From NCBI GenBank assembly GCA_017625775.1, contig JAGAKE010000002.1, positions 186,001-250,000 of the forward strand: 64,000 bases of DNA. Reading direction: 5' to 3'. The stretch comes from Fibrobacteraceae bacterium (GTDB lineage Bacteria; Fibrobacterota; Fibrobacteria; Fibrobacterales; Fibrobacteraceae). The notes beneath the pieces are model-generated. The model saw only the letters and a list, made by a program, of their open reading frames with translations, was not told the DNA's origin and did no database searches. Positions within the stretch are counted from its first letter, which is position 1. The number at the start of each line of letters is the position of its first letter. This document shows, piece by piece, positions 46,592 to 50,560 of this stretch. Both the position numbers and the translations under genes were made by a program.

Positions 46592-46599
46592 TATATTCA
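46592..46599 (+). promoter_or_regulatory. -10 element TATATT, leaderless arrangement
   Basis: TATATT (46592-46597) ends 6 nt before ATG 46604 of the helicase-like gene; TTGATG at 46566 is a possible but distant -35. Confidence 0.45.
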
Positions 46600-46603
46600 A
46601 GGT

Positions 46604-49600
46604 ATGGTCCAAGAACAAGTTTTTTCTTTTTTGAATAAAATCCGCTCTTCTCGCATTTCAGAGGCTTCTCTTGCTAGTCTATCAAAGTTGTCTTCGGGAA
46701 CACTTGATCAAATGCCTGTATTAAGTACAGATGCTATTGAATTTTATTCTGTTTGGATTTCAAAAAAGTCATTTCCTCTTTCATTTTTTATTGAGTCGCT
46801 CTCGGCAGATCAACAAAAGAATTTGCTAAAAAAATACGTAGAATCCTTGGAATCAGATTTACCTTTGTCTTTTTTTATTGGACTCGGTTTGCTTCGTGGA
46901 CCAGGAAAGCGAACTGGAGCTGCTTTATTGCTGCCGGTAAATTTTAATAGTCAAACCAAGGAATTTACCACAGCGGGTTTACCTGTTGAAAATCCAGTTT
47001 TGGCCGAAATGGAAGGTTTTCCAGAACCTGAAGCAGCACAAGTAGAAAAGAAATTTTCTTTGCAGGAATATTTTAGACGATTAAAAATATTCATTTCTAC
47101 TCAAGAAGGGTGGAAGTTCACTGAAAAGGGTGTTTCTTTAATTTTATTGCCTTCAGAAAAATTTATTTCCGCCGTTCGAATTGGACGATTGTATAGGAAT
47201 ATTGAATCTGAAAAATTGGGAAAAATCGCCAATGAATTTTTAGGCGAAGGGTTATCTTCTTCTGCGGATGCTTCTTTTGATGCAGCTCGTTTTAGAAAAG
47301 ATTTTCACCCTGCTGATTATGTTTTTCCTTACCCGTATGATTCTGAAGATACCGATGCGTTATTAAAAGCTTTGTCTGACGAATATCGTTATTTTGTTTT
47401 AGAATCATTGCCTGGAACAGATGGCGGAAAAACAGTGTCTAATTTGATTGCAGAAGCAATTCGTCGTGAGAAAAAAACAGCAGTCATCGCATCTCGTCCA
47501 GTTACTTTGCAAGTTTTAAAAGAAACGCTTTTGCCTCCGATTTTTTCAGACGAAACACCTGATTATGAAAAGTTAGAACTTGATTTACGAGAAAAAAGAA
47601 AGCCTTTTGAGTTGTATTATTCTCAAGTAAGTCCTGAAAACGGAAATACACCTTTGGTTGATATTATGCAGGAACTTTCCAAGAATAGAAAAAAAAGTTC
47701 ATGCAAATTGAATGGAGCTATATCTGAAAAATTAGACAAACTTTCTTTAGAAGAATGTAAAGAAATTGCTTCGGCGTTAGATGTTGTGTATTCCTTTAAA
47801 AAAAGAGAAAATGCAACACAAAAAGAACAATTTTTTGCTCCGTTGAATGAAAGAGTTTTTGGAAATGTCAATTTTGAAAATAAAATTAAGGCAATAGTTC
47901 AGCATGTAAAAACATTAGAATCTACATGGAATGAACTTTTGCAAACAGAAATCTTAGAAGAATCAATTCTTGAAGAAAATGTTAAAAAAAGTATTTTAGA
48001 AATTAAGGAAATTCTTTTACACACTTCTATTGATTATCCTGATTGGAATGTAAAATTACAAGATTGGGATACTTTCCGAGAAACAATTGAAGCGTTCCCA
48101 TCTGCAGGAAAAATTTGGAGTGATTTTAGAAATCAAGGCTCAAATGAATTTACTCCAAATGCAATAGACACTAATATATGGCTAGCTCGTGAGACTTTTT
48201 CGCAACTTAGAAAAACTCGAATGAAGCACATGTCGGAGAATTATCTCTCGTCAAAAAAACTTTTAAAGAGTACATTACGAGATCCCAAAATTGCATCAAA
48301 TGACGATGCTCTTCAAAAGTATGCAGATAAATTATTAGAAATACAAGAAAGTCGTAATACGTATAAAAATAGTGCTGCTTTAGCGCAGAGACTTTTTGGT
48401 AAAGATTGGAATTATGAAAAAACTGATTGGGGGCGTTTAGAAAAGAAAATTAAGGCATTCTATGCTTTGAAAGAAAAGAACCCTTCAAGTTTTAAACTAA
48501 ATATTTTAAAACATGCTTACCTATTTAAGGATTCCGTAAAGGAATTAGATGAATTTGTTGAAAAACTTGATACATACGAAACTTTATTGCGAGATCTTTC
48601 ATTCTATTTCAATATTGAATTGTTCCCTAAAGATTTGAAATCTCAATTTGAAAGTTTGAATGGAATTTTAGAATATTTCTCCGATTTGGTTGATTATGAA
48701 GAGTATCTAAAAGCTACGAATTTGTTGAATGAAAAAGATTTGAATGAATTTATTTCAAATCAGAGTTTACTACAAGATCAAGAAATTTCGAAAAAAATAT
48801 TGCAGTCATGGATCGCAGGGGCTTTGCAACGCTTGGCAAAACAAGTTCCTGATTTTTTTTCTAAAACGGCTAAAACTAGAATTAAGGAATCGAAAGAATT
48901 TAGAAAATCGTATGATTTGTGGGCGCAAGCAAATATTGTTCGCGTTCGTGATACCTTAAAGCAAAAGCCAGAACTTTTAACGCTCCTTTTAGAAAAAAAA
49001 TTGACTGCTTCTCCGCGTTGTGATTTGTTGATAGTTCTTGATGCGGAAACTATATCTGTGGCAGATTTTTTGCTTTACGCACAGAGTGCGAAAAAAGTGA
49101 TTTTGGTTGGAGATGAACATTTACCAATGGGCGTGTTAGATTCAGGTAATGTTCTTTTACATGTTTTGCGACTAGGCGCACCTCAACGAAAAGTTTCATT
49201 TGCGTTTGGTTGTAGGCATCCACAAATGTTGCAATTTGCATCGGCAAATTTTTATGAAAATGGTATTCGTACTTTCCCGCTGCCTGATTCTTCAAGAGAA
49301 AAACCTTTCTGTAAGCATTTGAGCGATGAACCGCAACAGTTGTTAGTTCAAGCGATAGTTAAGCATGCAGAAACTCATCCCGCCAGAACGTTGGGTGTGA
49401 TAGCGTTCTCTAAAGAAGAAGTTTCAACTCTAAAAAGAATGCTACAAAACACTCTGAAGGGATTGCCTAATTTAGCTTCATTCTTTAAAGATCGGGGTTG
49501 TCGAAATACTTTTTTCATTTCTACTCCAGAAAATGCGATAGGGAAAAAACGCGATACGATTTTCTTATTAGTTGATGGGGCTTTCCAAGGAATGAGCGAA

Positions 49601-50560
49601 GGCGCTTCTAAAATAAATGTTTGCTCTACGCTTGCTGACAGAGAATTGCATTTTTATGTTTCCAAGAAAATTTCTGTTTCGGATAGTGAATCAGGCAAAC
49701 TTTTCCAGGATTTAATTGATTTCCGTACAAGCGAAATAAGAACAGAAACCTTGCAAGTGCCGCCGCTTTCTCCAATTCTTCAAGAGTTAGAAAAGTATGC
49801 TTTAGATGAGCATTTGACATGCCGAATCAATTTAGGAACAACTTCTATTTCTGTAGGAATGGGAATTGTTGATGAAAATAATGAAAAGCGTTATTTATTG
49901 GCAGCAGAAGACGATTCTTTAAATGGTTCTTTGCAACATACCATTGAAGATCGAGAATATATTCGCTTGAAATCAGCAGAGATGCTTGGTTGGAAAGTTG
50001 TTCGGTTGTGGACTCCGACTTGGTTTATTTTTAATGAAGATGAAAAAAGCCATTTCTTGACCACCGTTCGAATAGAACAAAGTATAGCGCCACCAAAGGC
50101 CCTTCCCGAAGAATTAGAGGAGGAAGCCGAAACCACTGCCACTTCGTTAGTCGTTCCGTATCAAGTTACTCATCCGAAAATCATTGGCACTCCGCACGAT
50201 ATGCCAATACCAGAACTTTCGGAAAAAGCTTTGCTTCATCAGTTGCGTTTTTATGTAGAATCAGAAAGCCCTATTCATGAGCAGCAATTAATAAGTCGAA
50301 TGCTTTCCTTGCATAAAATTTCAAGACCGGGTCCAAAAATATTGCAAATTCTCCAAGATGGAATTCGCTTGTCTTTGCAGCAAAAGAATTTTATAAAAAC
50401 GGGTCCATTTTTTTATTCTCGTACTCCAAAAGAAATTCAGCCTCGCTATCGCGGAGATTTGCCAGATTCAGAACGTCTGTTGCAATTTGTTCCTCCAGAG
50501 GAAAGAGCTTTGCTTCCTTCTGACGAAGCTGTGATTAAAGAAATGCTTGGATTGCTTTAG
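46604..50560 (+). CDS. DUF4011/SF1 helicase-like protein with Vsr-like and DUF3320-like domains, motifs eroded
   Basis: A 1318-residue soluble protein. The N-terminal ~200 residues follow the DUF4011 pattern (FFIGLGLLRGP, ALLLPVNF, SLQEYFRRLKIFI). A Walker-A-like loop LPGTDGGKT lies at 269-277, a Walker-B-like LLIVLDAE near 808-815, and VGDEHLPMG near 834 in place of GDxxQ. AFGCRHPQMLQFAS and ENAIGKKRDTIFLL match later helicase motifs. Residues ~1077-1145 (LLAAEDD ... DREYIRLKSAEMLGW, VVRLWTPTWF) match the Vsr-type nuclease of this architecture, and 1190-1318 matches a DUF3320-like winged helix. Several catalytic positions are altered, so it may bind DNA without hydrolysing ATP. Stand-alone gene; defense or repair role unproven. 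Confidence 0.6.
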   Translation: MVQEQVFSFLNKIRSSRISEASLASLSKLSSGTLDQMPVLSTDAIEFYSVWISKKSFPLSFFIESLSADQQKNLLKKYVESLESDLPLSFFIGLGLLRGPGKRTGAALLLPVNFNSQTKEFTTAGLPVENPVLAEMEGFPEPEAAQVEKKFSLQEYFRRLKIFISTQEGWKFTEKGVSLILLPSEKFISAVRIGRLYRNIESEKLGKIANEFLGEGLSSSADASFDAARFRKDFHPADYVFPYPYDSEDTDALLKALSDEYRYFVLESLPGTDGGKTVSNLIAEAIRREKKTAVIASRPVTLQVLKETLLPPIFSDETPDYEKLELDLREKRKPFELYYSQVSPENGNTPLVDIMQELSKNRKKSSCKLNGAISEKLDKLSLEECKEIASALDVVYSFKKRENATQKEQFFAPLNERVFGNVNFENKIKAIVQHVKTLESTWNELLQTEILEESILEENVKKSILEIKEILLHTSIDYPDWNVKLQDWDTFRETIEAFPSAGKIWSDFRNQGSNEFTPNAIDTNIWLARETFSQLRKTRMKHMSENYLSSKKLLKSTLRDPKIASNDDALQKYADKLLEIQESRNTYKNSAALAQRLFGKDWNYEKTDWGRLEKKIKAFYALKEKNPSSFKLNILKHAYLFKDSVKELDEFVEKLDTYETLLRDLSFYFNIELFPKDLKSQFESLNGILEYFSDLVDYEEYLKATNLLNEKDLNEFISNQSLLQDQEISKKILQSWIAGALQRLAKQVPDFFSKTAKTRIKESKEFRKSYDLWAQANIVRVRDTLKQKPELLTLLLEKKLTASPRCDLLIVLDAETISVADFLLYAQSAKKVILVGDEHLPMGVLDSGNVLLHVLRLGAPQRKVSFAFGCRHPQMLQFASANFYENGIRTFPLPDSSREKPFCKHLSDEPQQLLVQAIVKHAETHPARTLGVIAFSKEEVSTLKRMLQNTLKGLPNLASFFKDRGCRNTFFISTPENAIGKKRDTIFLLVDGAFQGMSEGASKINVCSTLADRELHFYVSKKISVSDSESGKLFQDLIDFRTSEIRTETLQVPPLSPILQELEKYALDEHLTCRINLGTTSISVGMGIVDENNEKRYLLAAEDDSLNGSLQHTIEDREYIRLKSAEMLGWKVVRLWTPTWFIFNEDEKSHFLTTVRIEQSIAPPKALPEELEEEAETTATSLVVPYQVTHPKIIGTPHDMPIPELSEKALLHQLRFYVESESPIHEQQLISRMLSLHKISRPGPKILQILQDGIRLSLQQKNFIKTGPFFYSRTPKEIQPRYRGDLPDSERLLQFVPPEERALLPSDEAVIKEMLGLL

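What the first reader, a model, noticed from the sequence alone, without database searches (positions are those of the whole stretch)
46604..50560. Giant DUF4011/SF1-helicase/Vsr/DUF3320-type protein with eroded catalytic motifs
The order of domains matches a known helicase-nuclease architecture seen in defense and DNA-processing proteins. But Walker A reads LPGTDGGKT with a two-residue insertion and no first Gly, DEAS reads DAET, GDxxQ reads GDEHL, and the Asp of the nuclease motif I is replaced, although AAEDD keeps an acidic pair. An intact 1318-codon frame with its own promoter argues it is maintained, perhaps as a DNA-binding pseudoenzyme. This is the best candidate for an undescribed system here.
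Basis: partly seen in the sequence, partly recalled or inferred. Interest (0 to 1): 0.62.

Follow-up and report, generated by a model that had tools for sequence, protein, structure and literature searches.

The report
Conserved dead helicase-nuclease of Fibrobacteraceae
Most fibre-digesting Fibrobacter bacteria and their close relatives keep, at one fixed place in the chromosome, a huge protein descended from an anti-virus DNA helicase-nuclease whose catalytic residues were lost across the whole lineage yet which selection still protects, so it has probably become a non-enzymatic (likely DNA-binding) cell component of unknown role.

Summary
The ORF is real (46604-50560, +, 1318 aa) and belongs to the DUF4011 / SF1 helicase / Vsr-like nuclease / DUF3320 superfamily (PDC-S37, ProA, Hhe). 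In 85 intact orthologs, motif II is "LD" instead of "DE" in 83; the motif III Gln, motif V Glu, motif VI Arg and first nuclease Asp are absent from every sequence, and the motif IV Arg from all but one. Intact paralogs (including a ProA) aligned the same way keep the helicase motifs. The erosion is therefore ancestral, not specific to this genome. The gene is in 93 of 96 genomes of seven Fibrobacteraceae genera, nearly always single copy and intact, and absent elsewhere in the phylum. It lies next to gluQ in 19 of 20 neighbourhoods, and dN/dS is about 0.1. AlphaFold2 plus Foldseek give an Upf1/Dna2-type helicase core.

Some details were wrong. The P-loop has no two-residue insertion, and no sigma-70 consensus was found; instead a conserved TATATTC ends 5 nt before the ATG. 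"Defence system" is not supported for this gene.

Best reading: a domesticated, catalytically dead, nucleic-acid-binding scaffold. Its actual role is inferred and untested.

The parts
46592..46598 (+). Conserved TATATTC element ending 5 nt before the start codon; -10-like, would give a leaderless mRNA (inferred)
   Evidence: 42 of 44 dereplicated orthologs with the element have the TATATT hexamer ending 6-9 nt before the in-frame ATG; almost no other gene in 713 ORFs of the same loci has it at that spacing
46604..50560 (+). Pseudo helicase-nuclease, 1318 aa, whole gene
   Evidence: ORF; orthologs in 93 Fibrobacteraceae genomes; dN/dS about 0.1
46604..47308 (+). DUF4011-derived N-terminal region (residues 1-235); not detectable by profile in this protein, detectable in orthologs
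   Evidence: Pfam DUF4011 in 13 of 17 aligned orthologs; over the cut-off in most DUF4011-positive genomes, up to 45.9 bits among orthologs
47405..47443 (+). Degenerate Walker A / P-loop (residues 268-280, SLPGTDGGKTVSN)
   Evidence: Ungapped against GPPGTGKSQT of L143; Gly273 position 0/85 G, Lys position 63/85 K but Gly here, Ser/Thr position 2/85
47594..48988 (+). Long helical insertion between motifs I and II (residues 331-795), with one well conserved stretch at about 500-600
   Evidence: Predicted all-helical; conservation profile
49019..49129 (+). Degenerate motifs II and III (residues 806-842, CDLLIVLDAETIS...VGDEHLPM): DE->LD, Gln lost
   Evidence: L812 83/85, D813 85/85, Gln 0/85 at 840
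49199..49645 (+). Second RecA-like domain with degenerate motifs IV, V and VI (residues 866-1014)
   Evidence: Motif IV Arg 1/85, motif V Glu 0/85 (RD 983-984 kept 85/85), motif VI Arg 0/85
49814..50053 (+). MTES_1575/Vsr-like nuclease domain (residues 1071-1150); first Asp lost, E1102-x-D1104 kept
   Evidence: Pfam MTES_1575 E=1.2e-5; 17/17 aligned orthologs; residue counts
50213..50419 (+). DUF3320 winged-helix-like domain (about residues 1204-1272)
   Evidence: Pfam DUF3320 E=5e-4; 14/17 aligned orthologs
50444..50557 (+). Highly conserved C-terminal tail (residues 1281-1318) that ends where ProA/PDC-S37 continue into a further domain
   Evidence: tail sequences of orthologs beside L143-L145
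45679..46569 (+). gluQ (glutamyl-queuosine tRNA-Asp synthetase), conserved upstream neighbour
   Evidence: Next to the gene in 19 of 20 neighbourhoods examined

Best explanation
The gene encodes a domesticated pseudoenzyme. An ancestor of most Fibrobacteraceae captured a DUF4011-SF1 helicase-Vsr-like nuclease-DUF3320 protein of the kind now known from anti-phage defence (PDC-S37/ProA), fixed it beside gluQ, and it then lost the residues needed for ATP hydrolysis and DNA cleavage while keeping the fold. Shown: homology, fold, loss of catalytic residues in all or all but one or two of 85 orthologs, a fixed chromosomal position, near-universal presence in seven genera, and purifying selection. 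Inferred: it no longer hydrolyses ATP or cuts DNA and works as a large nucleic-acid-binding scaffold. In this view the helicase-shaped groove, nuclease-like surface and C-terminal winged helix hold DNA or RNA, and the very conserved C-terminal 220 residues and the helical stretch 500-600 dock a partner, as in known pseudohelicases such as Deinococcus PriA.
For: Fold and homology: PDC-S37 and ProA/Hhe profiles; the profile of 17 orthologs matches SMUBP-2, an Upf1-like SF1B helicase, at E=1.3e-7; AF2 model of residues 119-1318 (pLDDT 81, pTM 0.60) has Dna2, SETX, IGHMBP2 and Upf1 among its top PDB fold matches, E down to 1.8e-7. Loss of catalysis: residue counts in 85 orthologs, with the intact paralogs L143-L145 as positive controls in the same alignment; L144 is a full ProA, 2043 bits against a cut-off of 1500. 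Maintenance: 93 of 96 genomes in genera g1, g2, g3, g4, g7, g9 and g10; summed dN/dS 0.105 over 66 close pairs, 0.072 in the nuclease region and 0.083 in the C-terminus. Vertical core gene: gluQ adjacent in 19 of 20 neighbourhoods. By contrast intact DUF4011 proteins are found in only 3 of 168 genomes of the phylum. Precedent: D. radiodurans PriA lacks ATPase and unwinding but still binds DNA and DnaB (PMC4504706).
Against: DNA or RNA binding is not shown. The P-loop Lys survives in 63/85 orthologs (not in this one), and E-x-D of the nuclease plus a near-invariant nearby Asp (D1090, 83/85) survive, so residual nucleotide binding or an altered nuclease site cannot be excluded. One congener (G002, 94% complete) and the g5, g6, g8 and g11 lineages live without it, so it is not universally required. 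The AF2 model has moderate pTM and domain-only fold matches (TM-score at most 0.37).
Confidence: 0.6

Rival explanations
1. The helicase is dead but the nuclease is still active with a rearranged metal site (E1102, D1104 and perhaps D1090 or K1131), making this a housekeeping or defence nuclease that needs no motor of its own.
For: E1102 and D1104 are 85/85, D1090 83/85, K1131 84/85, and the nuclease region has the lowest dN/dS, 0.072.
Against: The canonical first Asp is absent in 85/85 and the His-containing stretch after ExD is lost. From memory, an Asp in the D1090 loop position is common in intact relatives too, so it need not be a migrated metal ligand. ExD may be structural.
Confidence: 0.2
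2. It is still part of anti-phage defence, as a non-catalytic sensor or decoy relying on a partner effector.
For: Closest described relatives are anti-phage proteins; it has the lowest identity of the neighbouring genes in the genus pair (58%, against gluQ 71% and hyp44 88%).
Against: Fixed core location, near-universal presence, dN/dS about 0.1 in every region; no effector gene is constantly linked; upstream neighbours look like housekeeping genes; no viral relatives found.
Confidence: 0.13
3. A decaying gene on its way to loss, with erosion reflecting relaxed selection.
For: One split copy (G031), one with an in-frame TAG (G107), and absence in G002.
Against: Nearly all full-length copies are open and dN/dS is about 0.1 in every region; the substitutions are old and shared.
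Confidence: 0.03

Closest known systems
PDC-S37 (PADLOC) / DUF4011-SF1-MTES_1575-DUF3320 proteins, e.g. L143 (G134)
   Same: Order of domains and recognisable homology over the N-terminus, both RecA-like domains, nuclease and DUF3320; every aligned ortholog matches the model (253 bits here, best member E=7.7e-162)
   Different: L143 scores 1407 bits with intact Walker A/B, GDxxQ, YRS, VQGDERD, VTRAK and RID...ECD; the Fibrobacteraceae family has lost catalytic residues of these motifs and is shorter at the C-terminus
Anti-phage protein ProA (NCBIfam NF058533), e.g. L144
   Same: Same superfamily; 195-bit match
   Different: Far below the 1500-bit equivalog cut-off; lacks ProA's roughly 350-residue N-terminal extension and intact motifs; core gene rather than sporadic
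Hhe (NF042953 / PADLOC Hhe)
   Same: Shared RecA2 and nuclease regions (75 bits)
   Different: Cut-off 2000 bits not approached
Deinococcus radiodurans PriA pseudohelicase (PMC4504706)
   Same: Bacterial helicase with degenerate motifs fixed in a whole lineage and kept
   Different: Unrelated helicase family; has a known replication-restart role and demonstrated DNA and DnaB binding
RecC / AddB (from memory: inactivated SF1 helicase folds that read Chi)
   Same: Dead SF1 helicase fold re-used for DNA recognition
   Different: Different family and architecture; RecB/RecD-like genes occur with and without this gene, so no sign that it replaces them

Membership tests
PDC-S37/ProA-type DUF4011 helicase-nuclease (active) | DUF4011 domain | tested here: met
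   Not detected in the window protein, but in 13/17 aligned orthologs and over the cut-off in most DUF4011-positive genomes
PDC-S37/ProA-type DUF4011 helicase-nuclease (active) | Functional Walker A (GxGK[ST]) | tested here: not met
   LPGTDGGKT; Gly 0/85, Lys 63/85 (Gly here), Ser/Thr 2/85
PDC-S37/ProA-type DUF4011 helicase-nuclease (active) | Walker B DE, GDxxQ Gln, motif V Glu, motif VI Arg | tested here: not met
   DE->LD in 83/85 (Asp at second place 85/85); Gln 0/85; Glu 0/85; Arg 0/85; intact in L143-L145
PDC-S37/ProA-type DUF4011 helicase-nuclease (active) | SF1 helicase fold | tested here: met
   AF2 model (pLDDT 81) matches Dna2/SETX/IGHMBP2/Upf1; profile match to SMUBP-2
PDC-S37/ProA-type DUF4011 helicase-nuclease (active) | Nuclease site Asp...Glu-x-Asp | tested here: not met
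   First Asp 0/85; ExD 85/85
PDC-S37/ProA-type DUF4011 helicase-nuclease (active) | DUF3320 C-terminal domain | tested here: met
   E=5e-4 here, 14/17 aligned orthologs
ProA equivalog (NF058533) | At least 1500 bits over the full model | tested here: not met
   194.8 bits
Hhe equivalog (NF042953) | At least 2000 bits over the full model | tested here: not met
   74.8 bits
Anti-phage defence gene | Sporadic presence in variable or mobile islands | tested here: not met
   Fixed next to gluQ in 19/20 neighbourhoods, 93/96 genomes of seven genera
Anti-phage defence gene | Protects against phage | not testable with these tools
   No experiment
Pseudohelicase | Helicase fold without ATPase and unwinding, maintained by selection | tested here: inconclusive
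   Fold, missing residues and dN/dS about 0.1 shown; absence of activity not measured

The most novel reading that the evidence does not exclude
A lineage-defining, non-catalytic genome-maintenance (or tRNA/nucleic-acid handling) factor of Fibrobacteraceae that arose by exaptation of an anti-phage DUF4011 helicase-nuclease: a case of an immune motor turned structural core component.
Probability: 0.4. Interest if true: 0.7.

Novelty: new variant of a known kind. Interest (0 to 1): 0.52.

Why it matters
Immune genes turned into housekeeping genes are, to my knowledge, rarely documented in bacteria as whole-lineage, catalytically dead giants. Fibrobacter is a main cellulose degrader of ruminants with poorly known molecular biology. 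A 1300-residue core protein specific to part of the family and under purifying selection is a clear, testable target, and at least one named strain (F. intestinalis ATCC 43854, L104) carries it. It also warns that DUF4011-type hits are not always defence systems.

Tried and rejected
DUF4011 search in the own genome found nothing because the window copy is too diverged; orthologs had to be used. phmmer of the single protein against the PDB gave nothing; the alignment profile did. Early reading 'Walker A Lys lost in all' was wrong and corrected (63/85 keep it). The N-terminal model (residues 1-345, pLDDT 77) had no PDB match. Idea that the protein replaces RecC/AddB: RecB/RecD-like ORFs occur with and without it and PDDEXK_1 is scattered, so no co-occurrence signal. 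Viral contigs: no relatives. Idea that TATATTC-N5-ATG marks a general class of leaderless genes: 19 sites against 5 in the reversed-pattern control, but only 2 of 8 checked begin a long ORF, so it is largely specific to this gene. No paper naming both Fibrobacter and DUF4011 was found.

Full report
Observation. The window holds an open frame at 46604-50560 (+), 1318 aa. By itself it matches only the nuclease MTES_1575 and DUF3320 profiles weakly, but matches the defence models PDC-S37 (253 bits) and ProA (195 bits) over several stretches. DUF4011 is not detectable in this copy but is in 13 of 17 aligned orthologs. The start codon is supported because M1 is nearly invariant in the ortholog alignment.

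Family. A protein search in 61 related genomes found the gene in its own family only. With a profile of 17 orthologs over 168 genomes of the phylum, my count of the table is 93 genomes with the gene, all in one family (Fibrobacteraceae; named hits are all Fibrobacter, Fibrobacteraceae or Fibrobacteres, including F. intestinalis ATCC 43854). It is present in 93 of 96 genomes of genera g1, g2, g3, g4, g7, g9 and g10. Two of the three gaps (G101, G115; 65% and 71% complete) also lack gluQ and so probably lack this stretch of the assembly. The third, G002, is a congener with gluQ in another setting and no copy. Genera g5, g6, g8 and g11 and all other families lack it. In a gluQ tree G002 is sister to the window genome and G001, so it has probably lost the gene, while g5 and g8 form a separate clade; the deeper branching is unresolved.

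Synteny. gluQ lies directly upstream on the same strand in 19 of 20 neighbourhoods, usually with the hyp44/exonuclease/topoisomerase III block beyond it. The side downstream varies. This is a vertically inherited core gene. Intact DUF4011 proteins, in contrast, occur in 3 of 168 genomes (G110, G134, G135); one of them is a full ProA (L144, 2043 bits) and coexists with the pseudoenzyme in G135.

Motifs. Alignment with the intact paralogs L143-L145 and counts in 85 orthologs, counted without removing near-identical ones: P-loop Gly 0/85, Lys 63/85 (Gly in the window), Ser/Thr 2/85; motif II DE replaced by LD (Leu 83/85, Asp 85/85); motif III Gln 0/85; motif IV Arg 1/85; motif V Glu 0/85 although the following RD is 85/85; motif VI Arg 0/85; nuclease first Asp 0/85, ExD 85/85. 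Conserved structural residues around them (P270/G271, N280, D813, G836, R983-D984) show that the alignment is in register. The independent profile match to human SMUBP-2 gives the same DE/LD register.

Selection. Pairwise NG86 dN/dS for close pairs is 0.04-0.09 in the first set and 0.105 summed over 66 pairs of a larger set; every region is about 0.1, lowest in the nuclease (0.072) and C-terminus (0.083). The protein diverges quickly in absolute terms (58% identity within the genus against 71% for gluQ and 88% for hyp44). Nearly all copies are open; exceptions are G031 (split frame) and G107 (one TAG).

Structure. AF2 on residues 119-1318 with 41 sequences (pLDDT 81, pTM 0.60) gives Dna2, senataxin, IGHMBP2 and Upf1 among the best PDB matches, E from 1.8e-7. 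The strand before L812-D813 ends where a Walker B strand should. The N-terminal part alone has no match. Best conserved are residues 500-600 and 1100-1318; the C-terminus is cut short relative to ProA/PDC-S37.

Promoter. The sigma-70 scan found no site immediately upstream. In 44 of 46 dereplicated orthologs TATATT was found near the start (the other two have disturbed starts), with the hexamer ending 6 nt (35 cases), 7 (1) or 9 (6) before the in-frame ATG and two outliers at 54; A-rich sequence precedes it. That spacing would put the transcription start at the ATG (leaderless; inference). Very few other genes in the same loci show it.

Mechanism. Shown: ancestry, fold, lost catalytic residues, conservation, fixed place. 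Inferred: no ATP hydrolysis or cleavage; a nucleic-acid-binding scaffold with a docking C-terminus. Precedent for a helicase kept without motor activity in bacteria is D. radiodurans PriA (PMC4504706). The main rival is a nuclease with a rearranged site. Defence is less likely given its core status.

Limits. No activity was measured; the relation to other DUF4011 clades was not resolved; genomes are mostly MAGs; genus labels are handles without names; the presence counts are my tally of the table.

Noticed in passing
window 46592-46598; L001-L024, L048-L109 upstream of the gene: TATATTC ending 5 nt before the ATG is conserved in nearly all orthologs and almost unique to this gene; suggests a leaderless transcript or a dedicated operator.
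   Followed up: partly
L018 and L027 (G031:C9:52437-56539): The ortholog of G031 is split into two open frames (frameshift, real or an assembly error); G107 has an in-frame TAG.
   Followed up: partly
L049:13550-18175, L052:13666-18315, L061:13716-18683 and similar: Downstream of the gene in many Fibrobacter loci lies a giant (about 1500-1650 aa) possibly secreted ORF on the opposite strand with a shared C-terminal 'xWGV[RK]' end, sometimes in tandem (L057, L074, L086).
   Followed up: no
L143 (G134), L144 (G135), L145 (G110), L146 (G163): A few Fibrobacter genomes carry intact large helicase-nucleases beside the core pseudoenzyme: two ProA-like proteins (L144 over the NCBIfam cut-off; L145 similar, not scored), one PDC-S37-type (L143) and one distant relative (L146).
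   Followed up: partly
L144/L145 nuclease domain (GILCDG): In the ProA-like copies the Glu of the ExD nuclease motif is Leu while the first Asp is kept, the reverse of the pseudoenzyme family.
   Followed up: no
G002:C143: Congener without the gene; its gluQ is in a different neighbourhood, with hyp44 at the other end of the same contig, suggesting loss with rearrangement.
   Followed up: partly
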